64,000 nucleotides of DNA from positions 342,445-406,444 of the forward strand of contig NZ_LNYY01000019.1 in the NCBI RefSeq assembly GCF_001468005.1. The letters run 5' to 3'. The stretch is from Legionella steelei. Its GTDB lineage: Bacteria; Pseudomonadota; Gammaproteobacteria; Legionellales; Legionellaceae. Every line of letters begins with the position of its first letter. Within the stretch, counting starts at the first letter, position 1. A program made the position numbers and the translations under genes. Below are positions 48,077 to 63,767 of this stretch, one piece after another. Below the pieces are notes generated by a model, which made no database searches, was not told where the DNA came from, and saw only the letters and a program-made list of their open reading frames with translations.

Positions 48077-49384
48077 ATGCCAAAAAACTATAAATTCCAT
48101 GATGACGATGATAATAGTTCTGAGGAGTCGTGTTATGAAAGCGAAGAAGGAACGGAATATTATCCAGTAAAAACCATTGGTTCTGGAACATACGCCAATG
48201 CAAGAAAGTTCCAATCTGCTGATGGCCAAAGATCACAAGCAGTGCTTAAGCCTCTAGATCAGGATAATATTGATTATAAGGAAGTTTATAATAAATATAA
48301 ATTTTTCAAGACTCTGTACCCCACACAGAATATTAAATTAATAAAACGTGAAGATACTTATAGACTGGTGCTTCCATACATTGCTGGCATACCTTATGAG
48401 AGTCTGCATTTCACTAGCAAAAAACAACAAATAAAACTTTTTATTTCTGCAATTGAAGCATTAAAAGATTGTCATAATAAGGGATTTATTGTTCTGGATT
48501 TAAAAGCAGATAATATCCATTACGACATGAGTTCTGGTAAGAGTTATTTACTTGATGGTGGGCTTTCAATAAAGGAAAATAAGCTGCTCGATTCCGATAT
48601 CTTTGTTGTAGAGACAAACGAAGAGAGGATATCAAAAAGAAAGAAATATACACAAATTGCACCAGAGTGTTGGTCACAAACGCCGATACCTGCTAAAAAA
48701 AGCATGGATGTCTACGCGCTGGCTTCTATGATGCAATCTGTATTAAAGAAGCCTTCCCCTGATATCAATCGTCTCATTCAATCATGCCTAGTTCCTCGAC
48801 CAGAACGAAGGCCTACTTTACATACGCTGGAAAAACAACTTCGAAAACTATTACTTCCTCAAAGAAATCAGACAAATGAGGTGCCTCATGAAAAACGCTT
48901 AAGTAATGAAAAAAACAATTATGCCTATTCTTTGAAAATACTGACAGCAAACAATATTGTACCCACAAAAAAACAATATAAAAGAATTAGAGAAAATAAT
49001 AATATTCAAAAGGCTATAATTGATTTTAATAAAGCATGTACTCAGCTCCATGGGAGCCTTGATATAATAAAACACATTTATTTTAGTATTTATAAAAGAG
49101 AAACTTTAAGCTTAATGCTCCGTGGTGCTATTGAATTTATAAAGGAATATCCCGCTATTGAGAAAAGGGCTATGGTCTTTATTAATACGGCATTGTTTAA
49201 ACAATTTATTCAGATTCACGCCGGAATGATTGTAACAACGCTATGCAGCTCCAAAACAGGATTAGCTACAACATCTACTTCGCATCAATCTAGGGGTAGC
49301 CTTTTATTATTTCAAGCGCCTAAAAAAGTACCTGAACGTGATGAAACACTTTGGTTGAGTCAAATGGATCAACCAATTCGTTAA
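48077..49384 (+). CDS. eukaryote-like Ser/Thr protein kinase, candidate effector
   Basis: 435 residues with AAAGGA before the ATG. The N-terminus is acidic (HDDDDNSSEES). The kinase domain covers about 28-265: glycine loop GSGTYANARKF (35-45), ATP Lys58 in AVLKPL, Asp141 in VLDLKADNIHY (the HRD His and Arg are replaced by V and L), Asp160 in LLDGG for DFG, then APECW and DVYALASMM. The essential Lys and both Asp residues are kept, so activity is possible. The C-terminal 170 residues are helical. It resembles the LegK class of Legionella effectors, but I do not name an ortholog. Confidence 0.85.
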   Translation: MPKNYKFHDDDDNSSEESCYESEEGTEYYPVKTIGSGTYANARKFQSADGQRSQAVLKPLDQDNIDYKEVYNKYKFFKTLYPTQNIKLIKREDTYRLVLPYIAGIPYESLHFTSKKQQIKLFISAIEALKDCHNKGFIVLDLKADNIHYDMSSGKSYLLDGGLSIKENKLLDSDIFVVETNEERISKRKKYTQIAPECWSQTPIPAKKSMDVYALASMMQSVLKKPSPDINRLIQSCLVPRPERRPTLHTLEKQLRKLLLPQRNQTNEVPHEKRLSNEKNNYAYSLKILTANNIVPTKKQYKRIRENNNIQKAIIDFNKACTQLHGSLDIIKHIYFSIYKRETLSLMLRGAIEFIKEYPAIEKRAMVFINTALFKQFIQIHAGMIVTTLCSSKTGLATTSTSHQSRGSLLLFQAPKKVPERDETLWLSQMDQPIR

Positions 49385-49702: not shown

Positions 49703-50128
49703 TTATGCCAAGCCTATGACTAAAATGCCGATGAAAATTAAGAGCCCACCAATAATGACTGAAAGATTCACATGCACTTGATTAAATAAAAACCAAGTAA
49801 AAATAATGGTAAATATGGGGTACGTTAATTCGACGATACCTGCAATTGTAGCATTTTTAAGATTGATAGAGGCAGCGATAAAATAACTGGCGACAAGCAC
49901 GATTACTATCTCGGCTATAGTTAATAAGAGCAAACCGGAATCTGTTGTTAGAAGTTCAACATCTCGTTTCATAGTAGTAAAAAATGAAATGCAGGTAAAC
50001 AATACAGCACCAATTGTCATTTCCAATGCTAATAGAGTCACGGGGGAAATGCTGTTTAATATTTTTTCAGCCAATGCGTAATTAAAACCCCATAAAATGG
50101 CAGCAAAAATAGCAAATGTGAACCACAT
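49703..50128 (-). CDS. half-size EamA/DMT-family transporter
   Basis: A 141-residue protein with five hydrophobic helices and one EamA repeat (WFTFAIFAAILWGFNYALAEKIL at the start, ATIAGIVELTYPIFTIIFTWFLF and GGLLIFIGILVIGLA at the end). Most EamA proteins have two repeats (about 300 residues). Single-repeat forms of about 140 residues exist and pair as dimers, so this is probably complete. Substrate unknown. It is a single gene. The dead transporter at 23935 belongs to a related group. Confidence 0.8.
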   Translation of the reverse strand: MWFTFAIFAAILWGFNYALAEKILNSISPVTLLALEMTIGAVLFTCISFFTTMKRDVELLTTDSGLLLLTIAEIVIVLVASYFIAASINLKNATIAGIVELTYPIFTIIFTWFLFNQVHVNLSVIIGGLLIFIGILVIGLA

Positions 50129-50651: not shown

Positions 50652-51356
50652 ATGTTAAAAAAAATATCTCAAGCTGAAATCCAACTGGCTCGACAAGCAC
50701 TAAGTCTTCTGGATCCTTCTCTTGCCAGAGCAAATGAGGTCATACCTATATTGGATTGGTGAACAAGGGCAAGCGGTTTTGCTGGTCTGGTGCGACTTAT
50801 ATTGGAACAACAGGTGTCAGTTGCTTCCGCCAATGCGATCTGGAATCGACTTGAGATGGGACTAGTTATAGTTAATCCACAGCAGATTCTCAGTAGAACA
50901 ATTGAAGAACTAAAGACTTATGGTCTGTCCGCACCAAAAGCACGCTACATTCATGGACTTGCTCAAGCGTATGAAAAGGGGGAAATCGATTTTGAAGCGC
51001 TTAAAGGACTTGATGATGAAGCAGCAAGTGCCAAGCTTGTAACATTAAAGGGGATAGGGCGATGGACTGCGGAAGCCTATTTAATGTGGTGTGAAGCACG
51101 TACCGATGTATTTCCCGCTGCAGATATAGCATTGCAAGAAGCAATTAGAATTCTTGACGGTGTTGCGAGCCGTCCTACAACTGAAGAATTATACTTGAGA
51201 TCCAAGAAGTGGAGCCCATATCGAAGTTTTGCTGCCGATCTGCTTTGGGGCTATTATGGAGCCATCAAAAAAAACACGATTCCTATGCCGCAAGGTGTGC
51301 AGCCCTTGAAAAAATCAACTCGATCTACAGAGAAAACAAATGCAAGCGATCGATGA
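50652..51356 (+). pseudogene. AlkA-type DNA-3-methyladenine glycosylase, nonsense-interrupted
   Basis: From ATG 50652 the trace reads MLKKISQAEIQLARQALSLL to ILDW, then TGA at 50760-50762, then TRASGFAGLVRLILEQQVSV and the rest of a HhH-GPD glycosylase. The helix-hairpin-helix is LVTLKGIGRWTAEAYLM, and the catalytic Asp lies in FPAADIALQ. Apart from the single stop the gene is complete (234 codons). The stop falls where related proteins have Arg after DW, so one C-to-T change would explain it. A GTG at 50790 could start a truncated protein lacking the N-terminal 46 residues. Very recent inactivation or a sequencing error. Confidence 0.65.
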
Positions 51357-51507
51357 TGTCAGGAAATTTTTAGGTTCGGTTATGAATGCTGAGCAAGAGT
51401 ATTCGGGACTGGGGGAAATCGTAGAAAACAAGAATCTGCCTTCAAGAACGACAGCCTTTATTTGGTGCATCTTGGTAGTTGGTCAGTTGTTGGTGCTGGG
51501 AAAATGA
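51340..51507 (+). CDS. possible 55-residue membrane-anchored peptide
   Basis: The frame MQAIDDVRKFLGSVMNAEQE to the hydrophobic end AFIWCILVVGQLLVLGK overlaps the glycosylase 3' end. Its TGA overlaps the GH5 start as ATGA, the classic coupling arrangement. It has a single membrane helix at the C-terminus. It may be a real leader gene of the polysaccharide locus or the stump of a gene cut by the insertion of the GH5 gene. No family is recognised. Confidence 0.3.
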   Translation: MQAIDDVRKFLGSVMNAEQEYSGLGEIVENKNLPSRTTAFIWCILVVGQLLVLGK

Positions 51508-52763
51508 AATTATTTTTTCGGAGGAATGTCACTTTTTCTTACAGGAGCCGAGCAATTTTTCGGAGCTTCATTGGCTTTTCATTCCTCTTTTCCCTGGGAT
51601 TCTCCTTCGCTCAAACCCTTCCATTGCATGTGGATGGTTCTATCTTAAGGGATTCCAATGGGCAGGCTATCATCTTGCGTGGGATCAATCACCATGGTTT
51701 CCTTGATGTGCCTGATGGGGCTTGGGATCCTCCGGGTTTACCCCTCTATTCAGGAATGGGCAATTGGGATCCAGAAGTAGTGAAGGAAACCTTGGATTCC
51801 TACAAAAAGCTTGGGTTCAATGTGGTCCGCCTCCACACGGTGGTGGATTGGTGGAAGAATAATCCTGTTACCTACAAAGATCCTTATCGGGAGGTGACCT
51901 ACCAGGAGACATACCGTCAAATGATACAGGACACGGTGAAGTGGGCCGGAGACAGAGATCTTTATGTGATTTTTGATTTTTTTGCACTGAAAAATGTTCA
52001 AGGGCGCCAATCAGGCCAGGAGTCCCTTCCATGGGCCCCTTGGGGGAGATTTCCCGAGGTTGTTCGAGATCGCTCTGAATTTATTGCTCTTTGGGATTCG
52101 GTGGTAGACCAATTAGGTGCTTATCCAAATGTTCTTTTTGAGTTATATAACGAGCCGCATGGGGATAGTCAAGCTGAGGAGGAATGGTTCAAATTCGTCG
52201 AAGAAGTTCTTCCCATCCTCCGTCACCGGACGAGCAATCCAGTGATTGTTCAATGGAATTATGACTGTTGGGTCAATCTCGACTACCCACCACCATCCCA
52301 CCCTGCATCCACCTTGGAATGGATTGAAAAACATCCTTTGAAAGATAACAATTTAATCTATGGGGCTCACCTGTACCGAAATTCCGGAGGAGGATCATCG
52401 GGACTGGCTCACCGAGGAGTGAGCTCCATTGTCAATCTATGGGAACGAGGTGATATCCTCCAGGCCCTTCAATGGGCTCTTTTTCCAAAGGTCTTAAAAA
52501 CAGATAAAAAGCTGCTTCTTGTGACAGAAATTGGAGCTTATCTTTCCAATGGAGAAGAAGACCAAGAACATGAATTGGAGTGGTTGAAGAATACTCTCTC
52601 CATTCTCAACGAGTGGGGAATAGGTTATGTGGCTTGGGCCTGGCGATCTGACCAACAACTAGGACACGGGATGCTTCACGAAGGATATCCTAACCGGGCT
52701 GGCAGTCTTTTTCTAGAGTCTCTGAAAGATCTGAAAAACCCTGCTAATACATCAATATCCTAG
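51504..52763 (+). CDS. exported glycoside hydrolase family 5 (cellulase-like)
   Basis: 419 residues from ATG 51504 (MKLFFRRN), which gives an N-terminal signal peptide (SFIGFSFLFSLGFSFAQ); the frame is open upstream to 51462. The catalytic domain shows the GH5 landmarks RGINHHGF, VVRLH, acid/base Glu217 in FELYNEPHG, YGAHLYRN and nucleophile Glu342 in LLVTEIGAY. It should cut a beta-1,4-linked glucan, mannan or similar polymer in the periplasm or outside the cell. Base composition is visibly richer in G+C than its neighbours, with many GGG/CCC codons, which suggests horizontal gain. Position suggests a role like BcsZ, the glucanase of cellulose operons. Confidence 0.88.
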   Translation: MKLFFRRNVTFSYRSRAIFRSFIGFSFLFSLGFSFAQTLPLHVDGSILRDSNGQAIILRGINHHGFLDVPDGAWDPPGLPLYSGMGNWDPEVVKETLDSYKKLGFNVVRLHTVVDWWKNNPVTYKDPYREVTYQETYRQMIQDTVKWAGDRDLYVIFDFFALKNVQGRQSGQESLPWAPWGRFPEVVRDRSEFIALWDSVVDQLGAYPNVLFELYNEPHGDSQAEEEWFKFVEEVLPILRHRTSNPVIVQWNYDCWVNLDYPPPSHPASTLEWIEKHPLKDNNLIYGAHLYRNSGGGSSGLAHRGVSSIVNLWERGDILQALQWALFPKVLKTDKKLLLVTEIGAYLSNGEEDQEHELEWLKNTLSILNEWGIGYVAWAWRSDQQLGHGMLHEGYPNRAGSLFLESLKDLKNPANTSIS

Positions 52764-53031
52764 TATCAAAGCAACTCATCAGAGAGGATGATTTCGATAT
52801 TATTTCGCTGTTTTAGTGCTTCTTAATAATCTGACACAATTTGCAATGTGCGGCCTTTGTTTGTTGATCATATGATCTTAACCAGTTGATTGAATATGAA
52901 AATTGGTTATTTATTGAGTGGTTCAACAAAATAAAAATTAGTCTATAGTATAATAAATGGTTTATATATTTGCCAAAACCAACGCTTTTATAAAATATTT
53001 TTTGGGACAATGTCGCTATTCGGAGTAAAGT

Positions 53032-53220
53032 ATGTATTCAAAATTAGCTCTAATACATAAAGTTGTATTTCTTGTTGCTGGTTTAGGGATTCGATTTTAC
53101 CAGCTACAAAAGCCTCTGCTAAAGAAATGTTACCTGTTATCTGAGACATTAATCGATTCGATCAACCAGGCGTTGAAAGTTCAAAAAAAGTACTTAAACA
53201 AAAAGCAACATAAAATGTAA
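53032..53220 (+). pseudogene. galU: galU (UTP-glucose-1-phosphate uridylyltransferase) N-terminal remnant
   Basis: The trace reads VVFLVAGLGIRF and then, after losing about one T in the run near 53097, PATKASAKEMLPVI followed by a TGA, and finally LIDSINQAL in the first frame. GalU proteins have VFPVAGLGTRFLPATKA followed by KEMLPV and LI, so the match covers the UTP-binding N-terminus. The remaining 230 or so residues are gone. It lies directly before the phosphomannomutase gene, where a sugar-nucleotide pyrophosphorylase would be expected. Confidence 0.7.
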
Positions 53221-53255
53221 TACCACTAAAAAGCCTAAACTGGGAGTAAAAAAAG

Positions 53256-54680
53256 ATGAATCAGGACAAATCTATCAAATTATCCCAGAAAACAACGTAC
53301 CGACAAATACAAGTTCCTAGCACTGTTTTTAAAGCCTATGATATTAGAGGGATAATAGGTAAAGAATTATATGAGGACTCATTTTATAGTATTGGTTTGG
53401 CTTTAGGTTACTATTTAAGTAAATTACAACGTCAGAAAATTGTACTTGCTCGCGATGGTCGCATAACTAGTCCTGTTTTAGCTTTAGCCTTAAAACAAGG
53501 ATTGCTTGATAGTGGCATTGATGTTTTTGATATAGGCTTGGTCACCACACCAATGATGTATTTTGCAACACATACTAAAGGTATTGATTCTGGTGTAATG
53601 GTTACTGGAAGCCATAATCCAATTAACTATAACGGCATCAAAATAGTATTGTCTGGTAAGACTTTAATGCAAGAAGATATTCGTATTTTATACACCATGA
53701 TTGCTGAGGGTAAGCGAGTTAATGGATGTGGTAAAGAAATAGAGCTAGATATCATGGAAGAGTATACAAAACGTATTGTAAGTGACATACAAATAAAGCG
53801 TTCATTGAAAATTATTGTGGACTGTGGGAATGGCACTGCAGGACTAGTCGCCCCGCAAGTGCTTGAAAAATTAGGTTGTGAAGTCATTCCGCTATATTGT
53901 GATGTAGACGGTCGTTTTCCAAATCATCATCCTGATCCAACAATAGAAGACAATTTAGTTGATTTAAAAAATGAAGTTATTGCGCAAAAGGCCGACCTTG
54001 GTTTTGCTTTTGATGGTGATGCCGATAGACTTGGTTTAGTGACTAATACTGGCGAAACGATATATCCCGATCGTTTGATGATGCTATATGCTCGTGAACT
54101 CTTAACCAGATGTCCTGGTAGCGTTATAGTTTTTGATGTTAAGTGTTCCAATAATTTGGCGGCAGTGATTAAAGATGCAGGGGGAATAGCTAAAATGTGT
54201 CCTACTGGACACTCTATAGTGAAGGATGTGATGAAAAAAGAAGGGGCTATCCTGGCCGGTGAAATGAGTGGGCATTTGTTTTTTAAGAATCGTTGGTATG
54301 GATTTGACGATGCGCTTTACAGTGCCTGTCGTTTGCTGGAAATCATTACCTCATCTAATCTAACAGCAAGTGATCAATTTAAATTAATTCCTAAAAGTGT
54401 CGGTACATCTGAGCTAAAAATTGCTATGCCCGATGAGAAAAAATTTGTGTTTATGCACCGTTTTAGGGAGAAAGCACAGTTTCCTCAAGCACAAATTATT
54501 ACTATTGATGGAGTACGCGTTGAATTTGCTACAGGTTGGGGCATACTACGTGCTTCTAATACCACTCCATGCTTGGTGGCTCGCTTTGAGGCGGTAGATA
54601 AAGAAAGTTTGCTCCACATTCAGCAACTATTTAAAACACAAATCCTCTTATTAGAACCGAAACTGGCGCTGCCATTTTAG
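53256..54680 (+). CDS. phosphomannomutase/phosphoglucomutase (AlgC/ManB type)
   Basis: 474 residues, GGGAG before the ATG. All four domains of the alpha-D-phosphohexomutase family are seen: FKAYDIRGI, phospho-Ser119 in VTGSHNPINYNG, metal loop FDGDADRLG, sugar-binding GEMSGHLFF, and phosphate-binding RASNTTPCL. It interconverts hexose 6-phosphate and 1-phosphate, feeding GDP-mannose or UDP-glucose synthesis. About 25 extra residues precede the usual start (a Lys/Gln-rich head). It follows the galU remnant and is part of the polysaccharide locus, convergent with the GT2 gene. Confidence 0.9.
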   Translation: MNQDKSIKLSQKTTYRQIQVPSTVFKAYDIRGIIGKELYEDSFYSIGLALGYYLSKLQRQKIVLARDGRITSPVLALALKQGLLDSGIDVFDIGLVTTPMMYFATHTKGIDSGVMVTGSHNPINYNGIKIVLSGKTLMQEDIRILYTMIAEGKRVNGCGKEIELDIMEEYTKRIVSDIQIKRSLKIIVDCGNGTAGLVAPQVLEKLGCEVIPLYCDVDGRFPNHHPDPTIEDNLVDLKNEVIAQKADLGFAFDGDADRLGLVTNTGETIYPDRLMMLYARELLTRCPGSVIVFDVKCSNNLAAVIKDAGGIAKMCPTGHSIVKDVMKKEGAILAGEMSGHLFFKNRWYGFDDALYSACRLLEIITSSNLTASDQFKLIPKSVGTSELKIAMPDEKKFVFMHRFREKAQFPQAQIITIDGVRVEFATGWGILRASNTTPCLVARFEAVDKESLLHIQQLFKTQILLLEPKLALPF

Positions 54681-54705
54681 TACCCATTACATCAATGCCA
54701 ATTGA

Positions 54706-56136
54706 TCATTTCCTTTTTTTGAACCAATCTACTACTTTTTTCTTGAACAAAGAGGTGTTTGCATTAGTTTTGGTAGTACGAATCCATACAAGCCCTCCTT
54801 CCCCTAGATACATACTAAACCCAATTGTGATAGGAACAAGCCAGAAAAACCACCAAAACATGGCAAAAATTGGATTCACTCGGAACATGTACCAAATTCG
54901 CGAGGACAGATTATCCAGCACTAGACTCGTTCGTTTCCACGTTTTGTAATAAAGGAATGATTGTTGAATAATACAAGCTGCAATGTTTATTATGCTAAGT
55001 ATGATCAACCACATGGGAAAGATGTTGCGATTGTGAATCCAGGCCAATAAGGCCCATACCCCCGTAGGTAGGCCAATTATATTAAACCATAGGCAGAGGC
55101 AGGGTAGAAAGTTCATCCATGCTAGAATTTTTTGACGTCTACTCATACCAAGGCGTGACAACGGCTCGGTTAGACTTTGAAAAAATCCGCAGATCCATCG
55201 CTTTCGTTGAGTAACCCCACCCATGAAAGTAAGGGGAACTTCTTCAATAACAGGTTTTTCAATGATTCCAAGTTTTTTTCCATTCATCCAAAATCGCATA
55301 CCGACTTCAGGATCTTCTATTGCCATCCAAGGATGAAATCCACCAAGATTGAGTAGATCTGATGCTTTATAATAAAGTGCTTTCCCTAACACCCAATAAG
55401 GGTGCTTTCCATTAGCAGATAAATGAGGATATTTTAGTCCATCCCATAACATATGATCAAATGCATGAAAACTTGAAGGCCATGTTTGATTCAGATTGCC
55501 TGCAATATTTGTAGCCTGTAATACGTCATAATGTCGAATGCCAACTGCAGCGTCAAGGAAATGATCTATAGGTAAGCACGTGTCTGCATCAACATAATTA
55601 ACGAGAAAATCTTCTTTCCCATCAAACTGCTGGGCAATGTGATAAAAAGCATAAATGAGCTGGCGGGTCTTTTTAGGTGGGAGATTAGTGACCCCAGCGT
55701 GTTTTCCTAGATGCCACCAGTACGCTTTTTCATTAGCACTCCAGTTGTCCCACACGATTTGCCAAGAAGGATCATCAGTAGGAGGTACCTCCATGATTTC
55801 TAAAAAAACAAATGTCTTTTGTAGATCCCTCAGTTTTTCTATCGTCTCAAAATCATTCGAATTAGGAATTGCAATAATGCGGTATCTATCTTTAGGATAA
55901 TACAGTTTCTCAAACGATTTCATTGTTGTATACATTGTTCCTTCTGGTTCTTTCAAAACCGGATAAAACAATACAATAAAAGGAAATTCATCCTCACGAG
56001 GGTCAATGGTTTCTTTCGTATCCACCCAATTCACGGGGCGGGAGTATAAATATAAATCCACAAGAAAAGAAAGCGAATAAATAATTTGTGCAAAAGCATA
56101 TAATGTTGTCAAAGCAATGAAGTAAGGTTCTGCCAT
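54706..56136 (-). CDS. processive family 2 glycosyltransferase (cellulose-synthase-like)
   Basis: 476 residues. An N-terminal membrane helix (FIALTTLYAFAQIIYSLSFLV) is followed by a cytoplasmic GT-A domain with the D,D,D,QxxRW set: YVDADT (Asp183, Asp185), Asp275 in AIEDPEVG and QRKRW at 310-314. Three to four C-terminal helices follow (CLWFNIIGLPTGVWALLAW, MWLIILSIINIAACII, FAMFWWFFWLVPITIGFSM). This is the plan of synthases that polymerise and extrude a beta-linked polysaccharide. It is shorter than BcsA and has no PilZ domain for c-di-GMP. It lies 59 bases downstream of the epimerase gene, in one operon. Confidence 0.88.
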   Translation of the reverse strand: MAEPYFIALTTLYAFAQIIYSLSFLVDLYLYSRPVNWVDTKETIDPREDEFPFIVLFYPVLKEPEGTMYTTMKSFEKLYYPKDRYRIIAIPNSNDFETIEKLRDLQKTFVFLEIMEVPPTDDPSWQIVWDNWSANEKAYWWHLGKHAGVTNLPPKKTRQLIYAFYHIAQQFDGKEDFLVNYVDADTCLPIDHFLDAAVGIRHYDVLQATNIAGNLNQTWPSSFHAFDHMLWDGLKYPHLSANGKHPYWVLGKALYYKASDLLNLGGFHPWMAIEDPEVGMRFWMNGKKLGIIEKPVIEEVPLTFMGGVTQRKRWICGFFQSLTEPLSRLGMSRRQKILAWMNFLPCLCLWFNIIGLPTGVWALLAWIHNRNIFPMWLIILSIINIAACIIQQSFLYYKTWKRTSLVLDNLSSRIWYMFRVNPIFAMFWWFFWLVPITIGFSMYLGEGGLVWIRTTKTNANTSLFKKKVVDWFKKRK

Positions 56137-56195
56137 AACTATTTCCCCGCCACTATTGATGAATCAAAAGAGTTTTTTACCAATGGTCCTAGAAC

Positions 56196-57266
56196 TTATT
56201 TTACCCAGTTGATTAATTCCATCATTCCTTCTGTAAGATTTTTTTGAGGTTTAAAACCATAAACTCGCTCAATTTTTTTGATATCTGCAAAACAATGCCG
56301 AATATCCCCAACCCTATATTCATTTGAAATTACAGGCGCAATTTTTTTATTCATTAGGCTTGCAAGCGTTTCCGCAACCTGCTGGATGCTCACAGCAGAA
56401 CCGCTTCCCACATTAAAAACATCATATACTTCTTTTTCATTCTCTAAGACACAAGCAAATGCATTGGCGACATCGCTAACATGCACAAAATCACGCTGTT
56501 GCTTCCCATCTTCAAACACTAAAGGGGGTAAATCCTTCAGCAAGCGAGCAATAAAGATAGCTCCCACTCCTGTATATGGATTGCTCAAGGCTTGACGAGA
56601 ACCATAGGTATTAAAAAGTCTAAGGGCGACAGTAGGGATATTAAGGGCTCTTCCCACAACGAGGAACATCTCTTCGTGATCCCGTTTATTAATTGCATAA
56701 ATTGACGCTGGCATTAATGGTTTTTCTTCTGTGGTAGGAATAGGAATTAGGATCTCACCATCGTGATACAGTTCCCATTTTTTTTCTTTGAGCTGTTTAT
56801 TGTTCCTAAGACTTGGCGCAAATGTCAGAGGGCCTGCGGCTGTTCGATATTGTCCTTCACCATAAATAGACATAGATGATGCAGTTACAATCTTTTTGAC
56901 TGAATGATTTCCCTTTGAAAGCACTTGAAGCATAACTGCTGCTGACATAGTATTGTTTTTAGTATAGTCAACAATATTAGCCATACTTTGCCCCACACCA
57001 ACAGAAGCAGCTAAATGAACAAGGTGGGTTATTCCCTTTAAATTCTTTTCAAATTGGTCTTCTGAAGAAAGGTCGCCTTTTATTCGTCGAGCACGTTTAT
57101 TTAAGTAAATAGGCCATCCTTCTGAATCCTTTTCTTCATCATGATGAACTTGATCCACTAAACAATCCAAAATTGTAACTTCATATCCTCGATCAAGAAG
57201 CCGGTCCACAAGATGAGATCCAATAAAGCCTGCACCACCGGTGACTAATACGTGACCCTTTCCCAT
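56196..57266 (-). CDS. NAD-dependent sugar-nucleotide epimerase/dehydratase
   Basis: 356 residues, extended SDR. It has TGGAGFIGSHLVDRLL (NAD loop), HLAASVGVGQS, Ser in TASSMSIYG, YAINKRDHE (YxxxK), RLFNTYGSRQ, RDFVHVSDVANA and a complete sugar-binding half. It is of the UDP-glucose/UDP-glucuronate 4-epimerase type; the insert between SIYG and YAINK (about 45 residues, with YHDGEILIPIP) is unusually long and may widen the active site. It is 20 bases downstream of the TPR-barrel gene and 59 before the synthase, so the three are co-transcribed. The exact sugar is not readable. Confidence 0.88.
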   Translation of the reverse strand: MGKGHVLVTGGAGFIGSHLVDRLLDRGYEVTILDCLVDQVHHDEEKDSEGWPIYLNKRARRIKGDLSSEDQFEKNLKGITHLVHLAASVGVGQSMANIVDYTKNNTMSAAVMLQVLSKGNHSVKKIVTASSMSIYGEGQYRTAAGPLTFAPSLRNNKQLKEKKWELYHDGEILIPIPTTEEKPLMPASIYAINKRDHEEMFLVVGRALNIPTVALRLFNTYGSRQALSNPYTGVGAIFIARLLKDLPPLVFEDGKQQRDFVHVSDVANAFACVLENEKEVYDVFNVGSGSAVSIQQVAETLASLMNKKIAPVISNEYRVGDIRHCFADIKKIERVYGFKPQKNLTEGMMELINWVK

Positions 57267-57286
57267 ATAAAAATGTCTCCATCAGT

Positions 57287-59359
57287 TTATACTTTATAAA
57301 TAAATGAAAGGCTTGCAGCCTTTGCCCAAAAAGACCCACCGTTGCGACTTGTTCTAAAAATGCTGTTATTTTGATTATAATATTGTGCGCCCAATCTCAT
57401 TCCCAAATGGGTGATGATTTTATAATCCATATATCCGGCTACTGCATTTCCATAACTAGAATTTTGTGGAAAAAAGGACAATCCATCTTCAATCCCCATC
57501 CGTAATTTTGATGTGACAAAATGTTCTATTCGCACTTTCCCTGTATGAACCTGAAAATCTATCGGGTCATAATATGCTGATTGACTGTGATTGTTTTGAG
57601 TAAATATCGGGGCAGGGTTGGAATAATTGAGGTAAAAGAAATCGTATATAATTCTTACCTCAGGAATATTTATCAGTTTATAGTTCGCTTCAAAACTTGC
57701 TTGAGTTCGGTTATTGCCGTCAGAGTATTTACCATAAATCCCTTTGCCCCATAAAGATAAATTTTGTGTCGGCTGATAATACATTGTACCACTATAATCA
57801 TCGGTTCGTATATTTAAACCAACCGCACCAATCGCTACAATATAATTGTAAATTTGGATACTAAAAGGAGGTTCGGTGTCGATGATGTCAGAATGGTTGA
57901 ACGTTATAGTTGCATTCAGAGTTTCTGACCAAGAATATTTCAATGCTACATTGCCATTAAGATTATTAAAGCCATTGTTATAAACTTTGTCGGAAATTCC
58001 CGCAAACAGCTGCCAATGCTCTGTAAATAGTTTTGACCCTTGCAATTGCACCATATTTCTAGAAACACTATCGAATCCATTTTGCTCGAATCCTGAATAA
58101 ACTTCTGAAAGATTTAGCCTGGTATTGGTCATTGCATAAAAATCAGCAGCTACACCAACATCTTGGCGGCGAAAAGTATTTGAACTATCATAAAAGTCCG
58201 CACTGATTGGTATCATAGGAGACTGATAGTAATCGACCAGCTGCTGCTGCAAAAATGGGCGCTCCCAATTATAAACTTCTTGCCAACGATCGTAGGCAAC
58301 TCGGTTGCCTTCATATTCATGTGCTGCAGCCGTAGACGATAAAACACCCCATAACGCATCGCTGTTGTAAGGATACTTCTGTAAAACTTTTTGATAATAA
58401 ATATTTGCCCGCATGTATTGCCCACATTTGCGATAAACATCACCCATTCCCAACAAGTAGCCAGAACTGCGTTTATCCGATATATCCGATAGCAAATAGA
58501 ATGCGGTATCACAATTTCCTTTTTGAGCTTCTAATTTCGCCAAAGCTTCTTTTGCTTCGGGACTTGGATAATCATCTAGGGATTGGGTTAACATTTTATA
58601 TGCAGCATCATATTGCCCAAGCTCAACTAATTTGCTGCCCCATTCATAAGAGAGAAATGCATTGTGTGGAAATCGTTGCATAAGCTGCTGATATTGAGCT
58701 GCTGCCAGAGCATATTGCTTATTCTTAAACAATGTTCTGGCAAATTCTAGCCGAGTAAAATTATCAGTTTTTTTGTTGGCTATTAAGGTTCTACCGAGCG
58801 CGATCGCATGATTATATTCATTATGGTATATGTAATTATTAAACAAATCTTTTTGTAGTGCTAAATTATTTGGATCGCGTGCCAGCTTTTGTTTCAGTTC
58901 ATAAATTTTTAATTCATTTTCTGTATTGGCCAGCAGAGGAGCTTTAATGAAAGCATTGGTATAGTTACTATTTAGCCAGCGAGAAGAGTAAAAGTGTTTG
59001 AAATCTCTTTGAGATTCGGCAAGATTTCCCAAATAAAATTCATCCCAAGCTAAGCCCTGATACATATTAGTTCCTTGGGGGTGGTTCAATGCTTTCTGGA
59101 AAGCCACGGTGGCTTGCTCCGTAAAGCCAAATAGATGTAAAAACCAAGCATCATGGGTTAAATAACCAGGATTTTTAGGGTCGAGGGCCGATGCGTTTCG
59201 GAAAGCATTTCTAGCTTCAAATGCATATAAGGCTTGCTCATAATTGACCCCCTTGAGGTAGGACTTATATGCAATTGCTTTTGCATTGTCGGCAAAAACA
59301 GCACTTGATACTAAATGGAATACAAAAAAGGAGAGTTGTTTTTTAAAAGCTCCATGCAT
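57287..59359 (-). CDS. TPR plus outer-membrane beta-barrel polysaccharide exporter
   Basis: 690 residues: signal peptide (LSFFVFHLVSSAVFA), about ten TPR repeats from residue 30 to 370 (ALYAFEARNAFRNASALDP, ATVAFQKALNHP, ALAAAQYQQLMQRFPHN, ANIYYQKVLQKYP), then about 300 residues of amphipathic strands. These are rich in Tyr and Asn and end SLSFIYKV, an outer-membrane barrel. This two-part plan is that of BcsC and PgaA, which carry a newly made polysaccharide through the periplasm and outer membrane. It is the first gene of the operon with the epimerase and synthase. Specificity is inferred from these partners. Confidence 0.85.
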   Translation of the reverse strand: MHGAFKKQLSFFVFHLVSSAVFADNAKAIAYKSYLKGVNYEQALYAFEARNAFRNASALDPKNPGYLTHDAWFLHLFGFTEQATVAFQKALNHPQGTNMYQGLAWDEFYLGNLAESQRDFKHFYSSRWLNSNYTNAFIKAPLLANTENELKIYELKQKLARDPNNLALQKDLFNNYIYHNEYNHAIALGRTLIANKKTDNFTRLEFARTLFKNKQYALAAAQYQQLMQRFPHNAFLSYEWGSKLVELGQYDAAYKMLTQSLDDYPSPEAKEALAKLEAQKGNCDTAFYLLSDISDKRSSGYLLGMGDVYRKCGQYMRANIYYQKVLQKYPYNSDALWGVLSSTAAAHEYEGNRVAYDRWQEVYNWERPFLQQQLVDYYQSPMIPISADFYDSSNTFRRQDVGVAADFYAMTNTRLNLSEVYSGFEQNGFDSVSRNMVQLQGSKLFTEHWQLFAGISDKVYNNGFNNLNGNVALKYSWSETLNATITFNHSDIIDTEPPFSIQIYNYIVAIGAVGLNIRTDDYSGTMYYQPTQNLSLWGKGIYGKYSDGNNRTQASFEANYKLINIPEVRIIYDFFYLNYSNPAPIFTQNNHSQSAYYDPIDFQVHTGKVRIEHFVTSKLRMGIEDGLSFFPQNSSYGNAVAGYMDYKIITHLGMRLGAQYYNQNNSIFRTSRNGGSFWAKAASLSFIYKV

Positions 59360-59527
59360 AATATATATACCTTGTGGTAAGTTCTTATCGTCTAGCTATG
59401 CATTCAACCCACGGTCTTAATGCCAGTTTGATAATTTCTCTCATTCCATCCGAATCCTCTTTAATCAATTACTATATTTCAATAGGCCGATTATCTCAAT
59501 CATACTATATTAAAATTAATCATGAAT

Positions 59528-60484
59528 TCAATTATGTAAAGAAAGTTTATTGGCAAAATATTCTATTGTACGTTTTAACCCATCTCGCAAATCAACTTGT
59601 GGCTGCCAATTTAACTTGGTTTTTGCCAATGTAATATCCGGTCGTCGTTGCTTTGGATCATCAATCGGCAAACTGTGAAATACCGTATGAGTCGTTCCAC
59701 CAACTAATTCGATAATAATTTTCGCTAATTCCATAATCGTAAATTCATTAGGGTTCCCAAGGTTAATTGGCCCAGAACACTCTTTATCGGTAGCCATTAA
59801 TTTGATCAATCCATCTACTAAATCGCTGATATAGCAAAAACTGCGTGTTTGATTGCCTGTCCCATAGACACTGAGATCCTGGTTTTGTAATGCCTGAATG
59901 ACAAAATTACTGACCACTCGTCCATCATTTGCTTGCATTTTTGGACCATAAGTATTGAAAATCCGGGCAATTTTCACCTCTAGACCATATTTATGTAGAT
60001 AATTTGTAAAAATAGTTTCAGCACAACGCTTGCCTTCATCATAGCAAGCGCGAGGTCCAATGGGATTCACATTGCCCCAGTAAGATTCTGGTTGTGGATG
60101 TATGGTTGGATCACCATAGACTTCTGATGTGGAAGTTTGCAAAATTTTCGCTCTATTCTTTCTAGCCAATTCCAACAAATTGAAAGCGCCAAGAACCGAG
60201 GTTTTAATAGTAAAAAGTGGATCCTTTTGATACTGGATGGGTGATGCAGGACAAGCAATATTATAAATTTCATCGATATTTTTTAAATCAAGCGGCGTAC
60301 AAATATCATGCTCAATAACAGTAAAGTTCTTATTTTCTTGCATAGGAGCAATATTTTCCAATGTACCAGTAAAAAAATTGTCTAAACAGATCACTTTGTA
60401 ATTTTGTTCAAGCAGTGCCTCACACAAGTTTGTGCCAATAAAACCAGCACCTCCGGCGACTAATACAGTTTTTACTGTTTTCAT
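59528..60484 (-). CDS. UDP-glucuronate decarboxylase (UDP-xylose synthase)
   Basis: 318 residues from ATG 60484, preceded by GGAG (an ATG 15 bases upstream would place GGAG inside the gene). Features are VAGGAGFIGTNLCEALL, LDNFFTG, the hallmark ACPASPIQYQKDP, TSTSEVYGDP, ACYDEGKR (YxxxK) and RIFNTYGPKM. This set is specific to UXS enzymes, which turn UDP-glucuronate into UDP-xylose in the cytoplasm. The UDP-glucose dehydrogenase that makes its substrate is divergently encoded next to it. It points to xylose or a related sugar in the polymer. Confidence 0.92.
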   Translation of the reverse strand: MKTVKTVLVAGGAGFIGTNLCEALLEQNYKVICLDNFFTGTLENIAPMQENKNFTVIEHDICTPLDLKNIDEIYNIACPASPIQYQKDPLFTIKTSVLGAFNLLELARKNRAKILQTSTSEVYGDPTIHPQPESYWGNVNPIGPRACYDEGKRCAETIFTNYLHKYGLEVKIARIFNTYGPKMQANDGRVVSNFVIQALQNQDLSVYGTGNQTRSFCYISDLVDGLIKLMATDKECSGPINLGNPNEFTIMELAKIIIELVGGTTHTVFHSLPIDDPKQRRPDITLAKTKLNWQPQVDLRDGLKRTIEYFANKLSLHN

Positions 60485-60777
60485 AAGATTGTGCTCCATG
60501 CCTAAAGTGTTTTTCTGAATAAGAAATTGTCATGCGGTTGATAAATCCCTTTTCATTTGAATCTTTCATTGACTTAAATTTATACTATAATTGCTATTGT
60601 ATCAACTAACTATACATTGTTATCCATTTCCTCACTCGCTTTCAACCAAGGAAGTGAGGAACGAGCGAGGTTGGTCCCTGGTGGCCTTAGGAGCATATGT
60701 TTTGCTGTATAAGACATGCGAAAAGGCGTCAGTTATTTGTGGTAGCGCTATTTTTGAACCTCAAGGGGAGCTCAAAA

Positions 60778-60912
60778 ATGAGCGGATTAGGATTGTCCTG
60801 GGACTGCCGGAGTTATATTTGTTGCTTGTATTGTTCCTTCTGGGGTTGGATGTTTTGGAAGGCTCTCAAAAACTGGCGACGCGCTTGTGGGAGACCTTTT
60901 AAGCATGAATAA
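60778..60912 (+). CDS. 44-residue Cys/Trp-rich small membrane peptide
   Basis: The frame MSGLGLSWDCRSYICCLYCSF to KALKNWRRACGRPFKHE has the best ribosome site in the region (AGGGGAG seven bases before the ATG). It overlaps the start of the ugd gene by eight bases, so it could couple ugd translation. A hydrophobic Cys-rich core is followed by a basic tail. No family is recognised. The rest of the 60485-60777 gap holds no other supported feature. Confidence 0.35.
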   Translation: MSGLGLSWDCRSYICCLYCSFWGWMFWKALKNWRRACGRPFKHE

Positions 60913-62275
60913 AATCACCGTTCACGGAATTGGATATGTGGGACTGGTTTTAGGGAGCGGATTGGCTGAACTTGGTAATCAAGTAATTTGTCTTGATACC
61001 GATGAAAAGAAAATTGAACAACTCAATGAAGGCATTGTGTCGTTCTTTGAGCCAGGGCTGGAAGAATTGCTGAAGAAAAATTTAGCGAATAATCGTATCT
61101 CATTCACTACTGATCCCGTCAAAGCGGTGCAACATGGAGATTATCAATTTATCACCGTGGGTACACCTCCTGCTGAGGCTGGTTCTGCCGATTTATCTTA
61201 CGTTTTTGCAGCGAGCAAAAATATTGGTCAATTTATTGACAAAGACTGTATCGTCATCACGAAATCAACCATTCCTATAGGCACAACACATAAAGTAAAA
61301 GCCATTATTGACACCGAATTAGCTGAGAGAAAATCAAATATAAAAGTAGGAATTGCTTTTAATCCTGAGTTCTTACAGGAAGGGAATGCTGTTCATAATT
61401 TTATGTATCCTAATCGCATTATCATTGGCTCTGAAGATCCTGATATTATTCATAAAATGAAAGAGTTATTTAAAGCAACACTAACTTCTGATAAGCAATT
61501 TATTACCATGAGCACCTGTTCTGCTGAACTCGTTAAATATGCCTCTAACACTTTCCTAGCATTGAAAATAAGCTTTATTAATGAAATCGCTAACATTGCT
61601 GACTATATGGGTGCAAATATCAATAGTATAAAAGAAGGAATGGGGGCGGATGAACGTATTAATCCTTTTTTTCTTAGTGCTGGCGGTGGTTATGGAGGAT
61701 CCTGTTTTTCCAAAGATATTAAAGCACTGTTAAAAGCTGAAAAAAGAATTCATTATTCTTTTCCAATACTAAATGCAATCGAGCGAGTAAATGAACGGCA
61801 AAAACATGTCTTATTTTACAAAGTGTTTCGATATTTTAATGAGTATTTGTATGATAAAACGATTGCTGTATGGGGGCTGGCATTTAAGCCCAATTCCTCT
61901 GATATGCGTGATGCCGTCAGCATTACCTTATTACAAGAATTATGGCAGCACGGCGCCAAGGTTAGAGCTTATGATCCAGCTGCCATGCCTGAAGCTAGAG
62001 CCTTATTTGGGACACGGGACGATTTAATTTTCTGCACGAGCAAAGAAGATGCCTTGATAGGTGTGGATGCGCTAATAATTGTTACTGAATGGGAGGACTT
62101 CTTAAACCCTGATTTTCAACTAATAAAAAAATCGTTAAAATATCCTGTTATTTTTGATGGTAGAAATATATATAATCGTGAGTATCTAACAAGTTTAGGT
62201 ATCGAGTATTTAAGTATTGGCAGAGGTACTTGTCGAATCTGTGAGGAAACAAAAAAACACGCCTCCTCTAACTAA
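60905..62275 (+). CDS. ugd: UDP-glucose 6-dehydrogenase
   Basis: 456 residues from ATG 60905 (MNKITVHGIGYVGLVLGSGLA, the NAD loop G-x-G-Y-V-G-L). Conserved blocks follow: VGTPP, STIPIGT, NPEFLQEG, the helix AELVKYASNTFLALKISFINE, catalytic Cys267 in GGSCFSKD, and AFKPNSSDMRD. It oxidises UDP-glucose to UDP-glucuronate with two NAD+. A frame extension to GTG 60887 is possible. It provides the substrate of the neighbouring divergent UXS enzyme. Confidence 0.93.
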   Translation: MNKITVHGIGYVGLVLGSGLAELGNQVICLDTDEKKIEQLNEGIVSFFEPGLEELLKKNLANNRISFTTDPVKAVQHGDYQFITVGTPPAEAGSADLSYVFAASKNIGQFIDKDCIVITKSTIPIGTTHKVKAIIDTELAERKSNIKVGIAFNPEFLQEGNAVHNFMYPNRIIIGSEDPDIIHKMKELFKATLTSDKQFITMSTCSAELVKYASNTFLALKISFINEIANIADYMGANINSIKEGMGADERINPFFLSAGGGYGGSCFSKDIKALLKAEKRIHYSFPILNAIERVNERQKHVLFYKVFRYFNEYLYDKTIAVWGLAFKPNSSDMRDAVSITLLQELWQHGAKVRAYDPAAMPEARALFGTRDDLIFCTSKEDALIGVDALIIVTEWEDFLNPDFQLIKKSLKYPVIFDGRNIYNREYLTSLGIEYLSIGRGTCRICEETKKHASSN

Positions 62276-62377
62276 CTTCATAAACAGTTGAGCTGTGAGA
62301 GATGGCGCAAGCCATCGTAAGAACTGGTGAGGTTTATAGCTAATGGTATTGGACTCACACTCAAATAATGGGCTATA

Positions 62378-63340
62378 TCATTTTGTGATTCGCCACTCTA
62401 ATGCTTCAAGGCCATCGACTATATTGTTAGATGAAAATACCTCATAAGATTTAATGGGTTTAACAAGATCCTTAGCTACAAGAATAGTATCAGGAAGAGC
62501 ATTTTTTTGCATGTGTCCAGCAATGTCAATGACTCTATCACTAAACTCTTCTAATGGGGTTGATAAATCATAATATACAAAACCAGTATTTATCCCACAC
62601 CGAATATGAAAATCTTGTTTCATCATTTTAGTTGACTGATTAAAATCAGGTAAACTCGATAGAATGTCTTTTGCCGCTTCAAAGGCTTGTTCTGTTGTAT
62701 TAAAACAACACATGACTCCGTCAGGTGTCCAGCTTGCTTTAATGTAGCCATGCTCTTTAATCTTGCATAAAATGAAATCATGATATTGATTAAAATCATT
62801 TTCAACAATTGTCGGATCTTCGCCAATCTTCATGTTAGTAGAATCTACCACGTCAATTGCTAAAAATGAGAGGTTTCTACCTGTTTTTTCAAGTTCTTTT
62901 TTAAGTTGGGCAAATTCCTTTAAAAGCGTTTGTCTGTTTTTTTCCTTAGGTTCATCTTTATCAAGGGTTTCTTCTATCTTTTTAACTAAAGTTTGTTGTT
63001 CTTTTGTTATAGCTTGTTTTTTAAACTCATTTAAGCTACGCATCATTTTTGCTTTTTGGATTAAAAGAATGTAATTAGAAAGAATGGAGGATAGAATCAA
63101 CAAGCCAATTATTGGAATCGCTCTGGAAAGATCCCAACCAGCCACTCGTGTAGGTATATAGTGTTTTATAGTGACATTAATTGCTTTGTCGGTTTGAATT
63201 ACCGGTTTTAAAAAAGAGTAAGAGGACAAGTTACTGATATAAGGCGCAATAATTCCCAGAAATAGAGTTAATATAAAACACCATACTAGGAGCTTTAGTC
63301 CCTTTAGAATATAAATACTGAAGAGATAAACTGCTTTCAT
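62378..63340 (-). CDS. membrane-anchored class III nucleotide cyclase
   Basis: 320 residues. Two N-terminal hydrophobic helices (LKLLVWCFILTLFLGIIAPYI and LSRAIPIIGLLILSSILSNYI) flank a loop of about 35 residues outside the membrane. A Lys/Glu-rich coiled coil (about 105-150) leads to a cyclase catalytic domain with FLAIDVVDST (first metal Asp), ASWTPDGVMCCF (second metal Asp; Gly-Asp-Gly is Pro-Asp-Gly here), and CGINTGFVYYD. It probably makes cAMP in response to an external or membrane signal. Legionella has many such cyclases. It is convergent with ugd. Confidence 0.82.
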   Translation of the reverse strand: MKAVYLFSIYILKGLKLLVWCFILTLFLGIIAPYISNLSSYSFLKPVIQTDKAINVTIKHYIPTRVAGWDLSRAIPIIGLLILSSILSNYILLIQKAKMMRSLNEFKKQAITKEQQTLVKKIEETLDKDEPKEKNRQTLLKEFAQLKKELEKTGRNLSFLAIDVVDSTNMKIGEDPTIVENDFNQYHDFILCKIKEHGYIKASWTPDGVMCCFNTTEQAFEAAKDILSSLPDFNQSTKMMKQDFHIRCGINTGFVYYDLSTPLEEFSDRVIDIAGHMQKNALPDTILVAKDLVKPIKSYEVFSSNNIVDGLEALEWRITK

Positions 63341-63690: not shown

Positions 63691-63767
63691 TGGCGTCCCG
63701 GAGAGGATTTGAACCTCCGACCTGCCCCTTAGGAGGGGGCTGCGCTATCCAGCTGTGCCACCGGGAC
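63691..63767 (-). tRNA. tRNA-Arg (anticodon CCT)
   Basis: The minus strand folds into a full cloverleaf of 77 bases including an encoded CCA. The acceptor stem is GTCCCGG with CCGGGAC and discriminator G. The D-arm has AGCTGGATA, the anticodon stem is GCCCC/GGGGC around CTCCTAA, and the T-arm has TTCGAAT. The anticodon CCT reads the rare arginine codon AGG. Confidence 0.96.

What the first reader, a model, noticed from the sequence alone, without database searches (positions are those of the whole stretch)
51504..62275. Putative synthase-dependent exopolysaccharide system with a GH5 glycosidase and UDP-xylose enzymes
The gene set (GT2 with D,D,D,QxxRW; TPR plus outer-membrane barrel; exported GH5; phosphohexomutase; epimerase; UXS; UGD) is a functional parallel to cellulose or PNAG export. 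It differs by using GH5 in place of GH8 BcsZ, lacking PilZ and a BcsB, and carrying UDP-glucuronate and UDP-xylose synthesis. Such a polymer is not part of the standard picture of Legionella surfaces.
Basis: partly seen in the sequence, partly recalled or inferred. Interest (0 to 1): 0.8.

Follow-up and report, generated by a model that had tools for sequence, protein, structure and literature searches.

The report
Mobile pentose-polysaccharide cassette in Legionella
A movable block of genes, found in few Legionella species, probably makes and exports a sugar coat built from xylose-type sugars, using a polymer-making enzyme of a little-known kind whose relatives in other bacteria often sit beside genes for xylan-cutting enzymes.

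Summary
In detail: all seven genes are at the stated place. They form one cassette. GT2, barrel and GH5 are full length in the same 3 of 45 Legionella genomes, in three different settings, under purifying selection (dN/dS 0.10-0.22). L. anisa also carries GalU, of which the window keeps a remnant, so its cassette encodes the whole route Glc-6-P to UDP-xylose. Close GT2 relatives (47-57% identity) turned up otherwise only outside the window's class. There the GT2 usually lies beside the same epimerase, and in three of eight loci opened a GH10 xylanase-family gene stands next to the pair. Three of seven whole genomes with the GT2 hold one GH10 match each, always within 5 kb of the GT2 (one is partial); four hold none. 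Best reading: a synthase-dependent exopolysaccharide made from UDP-pentoses, possibly xylan-like, exported by a PgaA-like TPR protein and trimmed by GH5. It works like the Sinorhizobium arabinose polysaccharide (APS), but synthase and epimerase are not its orthologues. Mannose is not needed. The polymer itself is unproven.

The parts
51457..62294 (.). Extent of the cassette as shared with L. anisa (about 91% DNA identity in the two long blocks, 80% in the short middle one)
   Evidence: blastn blocks 51457-52873, 52872-53138 and 53135-62294 against L014; different flanks in L. anisa and L. steigerwaltii
51504..52763 (+). Exported GH5 glycosidase
   Evidence: PF00150 E 3e-27; leader-like hydrophobic stretch 17-36 and NEP/TEIG; 3 of 45 Legionella genomes; GC 0.46 against window 0.37
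53029..53141 (+). Remnant of galU (UTP-glucose-1-phosphate uridylyltransferase), broken; an intact copy exists in L. anisa
   Evidence: tblastn of the L. anisa protein: two short pieces in two frames, E 1e-7; L. anisa protein TIGR01099 361 bits against 327
53256..54680 (+). Phosphohexomutase (phosphoglucomutase/phosphomannomutase, PgmG-like)
   Evidence: PF02878/PF02879/PF02880/PF00408; NCBIfam best PgmG 465 bits, below its cut-off of 600
54706..56136 (-). GT2 polysaccharide synthase, 476 aa, one N-terminal and about three C-terminal hydrophobic segments, DAD / ED / QRKRW
   Evidence: PF13632; segments and motifs; family alignment A5 of 11
56196..57266 (-). NAD-dependent sugar-nucleotide epimerase (candidate UDP-xylose 4-epimerase), usual partner of the GT2
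   Evidence: PF01370; directly next to the GT2 in 5 of 8 loci outside the class, one small gene apart in a sixth; UXS within 8 kb in 5 of 5 plasmid contexts opened
57287..59359 (-). TPR protein, probably with an outer-membrane barrel (PgaA/BcsC-like architecture)
   Evidence: TPR_19 E 3e-11; TIGR03939 PgaA 43 bits, best stretch 511-616; 3 of 45 Legionella genomes
59528..60499 (-). UDP-glucuronate decarboxylase (UDP-xylose synthase, UXS)
   Evidence: phmmer 2b69 E 6e-109 with aligned signatures; 93% orthologues only in the other two cassette species, next best 48%
60905..62275 (+). UDP-glucose 6-dehydrogenase (UGD)
   Evidence: TIGR03026 429 bits against cut-off 190; GGSCFSKD; start by comparison with L014 and L015
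62378..63340 (-). Neighbour, probably not part of the cassette: membrane protein with a divergent class III cyclase domain; homologues sit beside the GT2 in L074 and L075
   Evidence: PF00211 22.4 bits, cut-off 21.9; 37% homologues next to the GT2; full length in 14 of 45 Legionella genomes, 12 of them without the cassette

Best explanation
It is a horizontally mobile cassette for a synthase-dependent exopolysaccharide built from UDP-pentoses. Inferred flow: mutase gives Glc-1-P; GalU (in the cassette in L. anisa, here a remnant, so presumably a chromosomal copy) gives UDP-Glc; UGD gives UDP-GlcA; UXS gives UDP-xylose; the epimerase makes the 4-epimer (most likely UDP-L-arabinose). The single membrane GT2 polymerises UDP-xylose and/or its epimer while passing the chain through the inner membrane. 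The exported GH5 trims or releases the chain, and the TPR-barrel protein carries it through the outer membrane. Shown by sequence: gene identities, linkage, co-inheritance, purifying selection, the GT2-epimerase pairing, GH10 neighbours in some relatives. Inferred: donor sugar, linkage, processivity, export route. A xylan-like backbone is the favoured detail (about 0.4); a pentose-derived polymer in general about 0.6.
For: (a) Co-inheritance: GT2, barrel and GH5 full length in the same 3 of 45 Legionella genomes, UXS orthologues (93%) in the same three; flanks differ in the three. (b) dN/dS 0.10-0.22 for the seven genes (mutase against L. anisa only). (c) With the L. anisa GalU (TIGR01099 above cut-off) the cassette encodes an unbroken route to UDP-xylose, and only one glycosyltransferase, so a backbone made by it would draw on this route. 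(d) Outside the class the GT2 (47-57% identity) is directly next to the same epimerase in 5 of 8 loci opened, one small gene apart in L077 and about 5 kb away in L059; L076 ends just behind the GT2. UXS is also in the cluster in L058, L059 and L077, UGD in L058. (e) 7 of 7 GT2-bearing genomes searched hold a UXS candidate: 6 with a best match of 58-60% identity, one only a 35% homologue that keeps SSSEIYGDP and lies next to a UGD. (f) A GH10 follows the epimerase and points towards it in L058, L074 and L075, and L058 has a second; 3 of 7 whole genomes have exactly one GH10 match, 1.3-4.5 kb from the GT2; the GH10 of L074 matches endo-1,4-beta-xylanases at E 1e-44, and the glutamates of NE and TELDV are invariant in the four full-length GH10s (that they are catalytic is recalled).
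Against: GH10 is absent from 4 of 7 GT2-bearing genomes outside the class and from all three cassette-bearing Legionella. In G434 the match is partial (105 of 311 positions). G1202 and G1193 are of one genus, so not independent. The Legionella GH5 resembles endoglucanases best among solved structures, weakly (E 1e-7). The first conserved Asp of the GT2 is not where expected, so processive catalysis is not assured. The epimerase is only 25% identical to Uxe of S. meliloti and its profile hits many solved sugar epimerases and dehydratases, so its substrate is open. G1202 has no UXS above 35% identity. The TPR-barrel exporter was not found by tblastn in the stretches held around the GT2 outside the class nor in plasmids. 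No structure could be predicted.
Confidence: 0.6

Rival explanations
1. A beta-glucan (cellulose-like) system: the GT2 polymerises UDP-glucose, GH5 is its endoglucanase, and UGD/UXS/epimerase serve something else or decorate the chain.
For: The only solved chains that the GT2 profile hits are bacterial cellulose synthases, and the best solved GH5s are endoglucanases; a GH5 partner of a cellulose synthase is known in Clostridia (CcsZ, PMC7710045, passages incl. part of the abstract).
Against: CelA model 23 bits against a cut-off of 699; no BcsB or PilZ matched; the cassette has no second glycosyltransferase to add pentoses, yet carries UXS and an epimerase, the latter staying with the GT2 across classes; the hydrolase neighbours found in relatives are GH10.
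Confidence: 0.15
2. A uronic-acid polymer: the epimerase is a UDP-glucuronate 4-epimerase giving UDP-galacturonate, and the GT2 uses UDP-GlcA/UDP-GalA; UXS is a side branch.
For: UGD in the Legionella cassette and in the Rhizobium cluster; the epimerase profile hits 6zl6 at E 1.5e-38, which I recall as a UDP-glucuronate 4-epimerase.
Against: UXS is kept in the cassette of all three Legionella and in L058, L059, L077 and would drain UDP-GlcA; GH10 enzymes cut xylans; 5 of 5 plasmid contexts of the epimerase family opened have a UXS within 8 kb.
Confidence: 0.12
3. The GT2 is not a polymer synthase but adds one or few sugars to a lipid or LPS acceptor.
For: The first Asp motif is replaced; the protein is short with few hydrophobic segments.
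Against: QxxRW, ED and DxD are kept; in Legionella it is linked to an exported glycosidase and a TPR exporter, parts of polymer systems, and in some relatives to GH10.
Confidence: 0.1
4. Unlinked genes collected by chance around a hot spot near tRNA-Arg.
For: A tRNA-Arg gene lies at 63691-63767; short neighbour frames on the left.
Against: The same gene set, less mutase in one, in three species at different places and the GT2-epimerase pair across classes.
Confidence: 0.03

Closest known systems
[quoted passage not shown]
   Same: UXS, a second sugar-nucleotide enzyme, one GT2 synthase and hydrolase genes in one cluster. The product contains arabinose, gives red colonies on Congo red and rises with c-di-GMP (PMC7902896, passages). 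In the pSymB stretch L061 I find an AraC-type gene, UXS (59% to the window's), an epimerase, a GT2 and a GH26 match; calling them cuxR, uxs1, uxe, apsS and apsH1 is by gene order and recall.
   Different: Synthase not an orthologue (hhalign probability about 1%, generic motifs only); epimerase 25% identical; GH26 rather than GH5/GH10; no tblastn match of the TPR-barrel protein in the 40 kb.
PNAG (pga) and cellulose (bcs) synthase-dependent systems
   Same: Inner-membrane GT2, periplasmic or exported glycosidase, TPR plus barrel exporter.
   Different: Models far below cut-off or not matched; no BcsB or PilZ matched; own UDP-xylose supply.
Clostridial cellulose synthase Ccs with GH5 CcsZ (PMC7710045, passages)
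   Same: GH5 as cognate hydrolase of a cellulose-type synthase.
   Different: Clostridial; CcsZ is specific for cellulosic material; no UDP-pentose genes mentioned in the passages seen.
Plant and algal xylan synthase XYS1/IRX10 (GT47; PMC5902652, passages)
   Same: Would make a similar polymer if the xylan reading is right.
   Different: GT47, not GT2; no sequence relation tested.
Legionella longbeachae capsule (PMC11419355, passages)
   Same: A Legionella surface polysaccharide cluster of restricted distribution.
   Different: 48 kb, 33 genes, ABC transporter; another export route.

Membership tests
Gram-negative synthase-dependent exopolysaccharide system (features as listed in PMC7112194, passages) | Inner-membrane polysaccharide synthase | tested here: met
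   GT2 with N- and C-terminal hydrophobic segments, DxD, ED, QRKRW; first Asp motif replaced; activity not tested
Gram-negative synthase-dependent exopolysaccharide system (features as listed in PMC7112194, passages) | c-di-GMP-binding regulatory domain or co-polymerase | tested here: not met
   No PilZ or other such domain in the ten proteins scanned; a divergent cyclase-like neighbour is the only signalling-type protein among them
Gram-negative synthase-dependent exopolysaccharide system (features as listed in PMC7112194, passages) | Periplasmic modifying enzyme | tested here: met
   GH5 with leader-like N-terminus
Gram-negative synthase-dependent exopolysaccharide system (features as listed in PMC7112194, passages) | TPR domain with outer-membrane pore | tested here: inconclusive
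   TPRs clear; barrel only by a weak PgaA match; structure prediction unavailable
S. meliloti APS system | Orthologous synthase and epimerase | tested here: not met
S. meliloti APS system | UXS in the cluster | tested here: met
   59% identity to the pSymB UXS
S. meliloti APS system | Arabinose in the product | not testable with these tools
   needs glycan analysis
Bacterial cellulose synthase (Bcs) | CelA/BcsA model above cut-off, BcsB, PilZ | tested here: not met
   TIGR03030 23.3 bits against 699.1; no BcsB or PilZ
PNAG (Pga) | PgaA model above cut-off; PgaB and PgaC models matched | tested here: not met
   PgaA 43.2 bits against 366.65; no PgaB or PgaC match listed
Xylan synthase (activity) | UDP-xylose-dependent beta-1,4-xylan formation | not testable with these tools
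   only neighbourhood evidence: UXS and GH10

The most novel reading that the evidence does not exclude
It would be a bacterial, cellulose-synthase-like answer to a polymer that plants make with GT47 enzymes, paired with its own epimerase and a GH10 or GH5 trimming enzyme, and carried into amoeba-dwelling Legionella as a cassette.
Probability: 0.3. Interest if true: 0.75.

Novelty: new variant of a known kind. Interest (0 to 1): 0.55.

Why it matters
The 2020 survey that I read in passages lists five synthase-dependent polymers as identified (cellulose, acetylated cellulose, PNAG, alginate, Pel; PMC7112194); it does not list the S. meliloti APS. A further one built from UDP-pentoses by an unrelated synthase would widen the class, and a one-protein xylan-type synthase would be useful for glycan synthesis and for asking how often hemicellulose-like polymers arose. 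For Legionella it adds an accessory surface polymer of few species; the L. longbeachae capsule is the other case that I met.

Tried and rejected
That the cluster is an orthologue of S. meliloti APS: rejected for synthase and epimerase, kept as a functional parallel. That the cyclase-like neighbour (62378-63340) belongs to the system: 37% homologues stand beside the GT2 in two loci of one genus outside the class, but 14 of 45 Legionella genomes carry it full length, 12 of them without the cassette; in L. steigerwaltii it is on another contig and in L. anisa there is only a weak hit; not accepted. A viral origin: no pattern match in viral contigs; PHROGs gave only epimerase, dehydrogenase and reductase hits. 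Promoter- and terminator-like sites were within chance (42 against 36.0 sd 5.5; 7 against 8.7 sd 3.3), and the few repeats listed do not lie at the cassette edges. UDP-apiose: considered through PMC5607165 (passages), not pursued. An alignment with a wrong reading frame for one locus (A2) was dropped and remade (A3). Literature searches for this system in Legionella or a bacterial GT2 xylan synthase: no such title or abstract start in the rows listed (15 of 32, 15 of 63, 15 of 27, 12 of 3,362 and 10 of 113 papers); the library holds open-licence papers only.
Full report
Observation. Signature motifs are present in each enzyme (which motifs are catalytic is recalled). The GT2 keeps DAD, ED and QRKRW. 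In place of the usual first Asp motif it has PN..D, invariant in the 11 members aligned, so D,D,D,QxxRW is not quite right.

A cassette. In 45 Legionella genomes the GT2 (which searched 92 genomes in all), the barrel and the GH5 are full length in exactly the same three: the window's own, L. anisa and L. steigerwaltii (names, where a scan for close relatives found these two only). Three further Legionella genomes and one other genome gave short, 23-27% matches to the GT2. UXS orthologues at 93% are in the same three; the next best is 48% in one further genome, then 36% and less. DNA identity to L. anisa runs from 51457 to 62294 within the 20 kb compared. The neighbours differ: in L. anisa an IS701-type transposase frame lies beyond UGD, and gamma-glutamyltransferase and coaD beyond GH5; in L. 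steigerwaltii an ovoA-type gene lies beyond UGD and an enolase-superfamily epimerase beyond GH5; in the window an HhH-GPD frame and the cyclase-like gene. L. anisa has a GalU gene between GH5 and mutase (TIGR01099, 361 bits against 327); the window keeps a remnant of it; L. steigerwaltii has neither mutase nor GalU there. dN/dS between the species is 0.10-0.22 for every gene (mutase against L. anisa only), so the genes are maintained. GH5 stands out with 46% GC against 37% for the window and a dS of 0.70 to L. steigerwaltii where the five other genes compared have 0.21-0.44: it may have a separate history.

Relatives. In 369 genomes of the class only the window's own has a full-length GT2; the other 20 with a match show short generic hits. 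In a sample of 398 genomes of the phylum 102 have a match, but only G434 and G545 besides the window's own are near full length; both belong to one other class (2 of 385 there at E 1e-40). Among 41 relatives of G545 six have it, G545 included; among 39 of G434 only itself. Among 72,556 plasmids six records match: Rhizobium sp. BG4 (Alphaproteobacteria) at 57% over 96%, a Natrinema archaeal record at 24% over 81%, and four shorter, at most 32% identical.

Neighbourhoods. I opened eight loci outside the class (L058-L060, L073-L077). The same epimerase is directly next to the GT2 in five (L058, L060, L073, L074, L075), one small gene apart in L077, about 5 kb away in L059; L076 ends just behind the GT2. 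UXS is in the cluster in L058, L059 and L077, UGD in L058. In L058, L074 and L075 a GH10 gene follows the epimerase and points towards it; L058 has a second beyond UXS; L059 has a partial GH10 domain. PF00331 over seven whole genomes with the GT2 and the three Legionella: G1202, G1193 and G434 have one match each, 1.4, 1.3 and 4.5 kb from the GT2; the other seven of the ten have none; 4 of 14 control genomes have GH10. The chance of one randomly placed gene lying so close is about 8e-4, 5e-4 and 2e-3 in turn, but G1202 and G1193 are of one genus and G434's match covers 105 of 311 positions. The GH10 of L074 matches endo-1,4-beta-xylanases at E 1e-44, and the NE and TELDV glutamates are invariant in the four full-length GH10s.

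Donor sugar. Seven of seven GT2 genomes searched have a UDP-glucuronate decarboxylase candidate: six with a best match of 58-60% identity to the window's, and G1202 only a 35% homologue, which keeps SSSEIYGDP and lies beside a UGD about 14 kb from the GT2. Relatives of the epimerase outside GT2 clusters also keep company with UXS: four such plasmid contexts opened, of 155 records found, all have one within 8 kb, as has the BG4 cluster itself. The cassette has one glycosyltransferase and, in L. anisa, enzymes for every step from Glc-6-P to UDP-xylose. The simplest reading is that the GT2 polymerises UDP-xylose, its 4-epimer or both. The epimerase's substrate is inferred; comparison with solved epimerases does not decide it.

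Mechanism proposed. Cytoplasm: mutase, (GalU), UGD, UXS and epimerase supply UDP-pentoses. Inner membrane: GT2 elongates and passes the chain. Periplasm or outside: GH5 here, GH10 in some relatives, trims or releases it. Outer membrane: the TPR-barrel lets it out. The last three steps are inferred from architecture. How the systems outside the class cross the outer membrane is open: no TPR-barrel relative was found in their loci by tblastn.

Comparison. S. meliloti makes an arabinose-containing polysaccharide from uxs1-uxe-apsS-apsH1-apsE-apsH2 under c-di-GMP and CuxR, seen as red wrinkled colonies on Congo red (PMC7902896, passages; the one primary paper asked for was not held). I located UXS, an epimerase, a GT2, a GH26 match and an AraC-type gene in pSymB. 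The logic is the same, but synthase and epimerase are not orthologues. Cellulose and PNAG membership fails by model scores. A GH5 as synthase partner has a precedent in the clostridial cellulose system (PMC7710045, passages). Plant xylan synthase is GT47 (PMC5902652, passages, which also says that xylan is among the polymers found in some other algae and bacteria). Searches for print reports of this system or of a bacterial GT2 xylan synthase showed none in the rows listed; the lists were capped and the library is open-licence only, so this is not proof of absence.

Limits. No structure prediction was possible. Counts rest on one genome per species and on even samples of large groups. Four of seven GT2 genomes and the three Legionella lack GH10; the Legionella GH5 is nearest, weakly, to endoglucanases, which keeps a glucan alive at about 0.15.

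Noticed in passing
62378-63340 (-): Membrane protein with a divergent class III cyclase domain, full length in 14 of 45 Legionella genomes; a distant homologue sits right beside the GT2 in two genomes outside the class (L074, L075). Coincidence or link is unexplained.
   Followed up: partly
48077-49384 (+): Protein with a eukaryotic-type protein kinase domain (PF00069, 42 bits), and just before it a 1148-aa frame (44463-47909) without a Pfam match.
   Followed up: partly
49703-50128 (-) and 50790-51356 (+): EamA-type (141 aa) and HhH-GPD (188 aa) frames at the left edge of the cassette that look shortened, suggesting a rearranged site.
   Followed up: no
63691-63767 (-): tRNA-Arg (CCT), the only tRNA found in the window, lies 1.4 kb beyond the cassette's right edge.
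   Followed up: no
L058:6387-8123 (+): In Rhizobium sp. BG4 a PAS-GGDEF-EAL protein lies beside a GH10 gene that flanks the cluster, hinting at c-di-GMP control there.
   Followed up: no
L073:8187-8867 and L077:8693-9298: A small lipoprotein-like gene, 32% identical between the two loci, directly precedes the GT2 in both; no Pfam match.
   Followed up: partly
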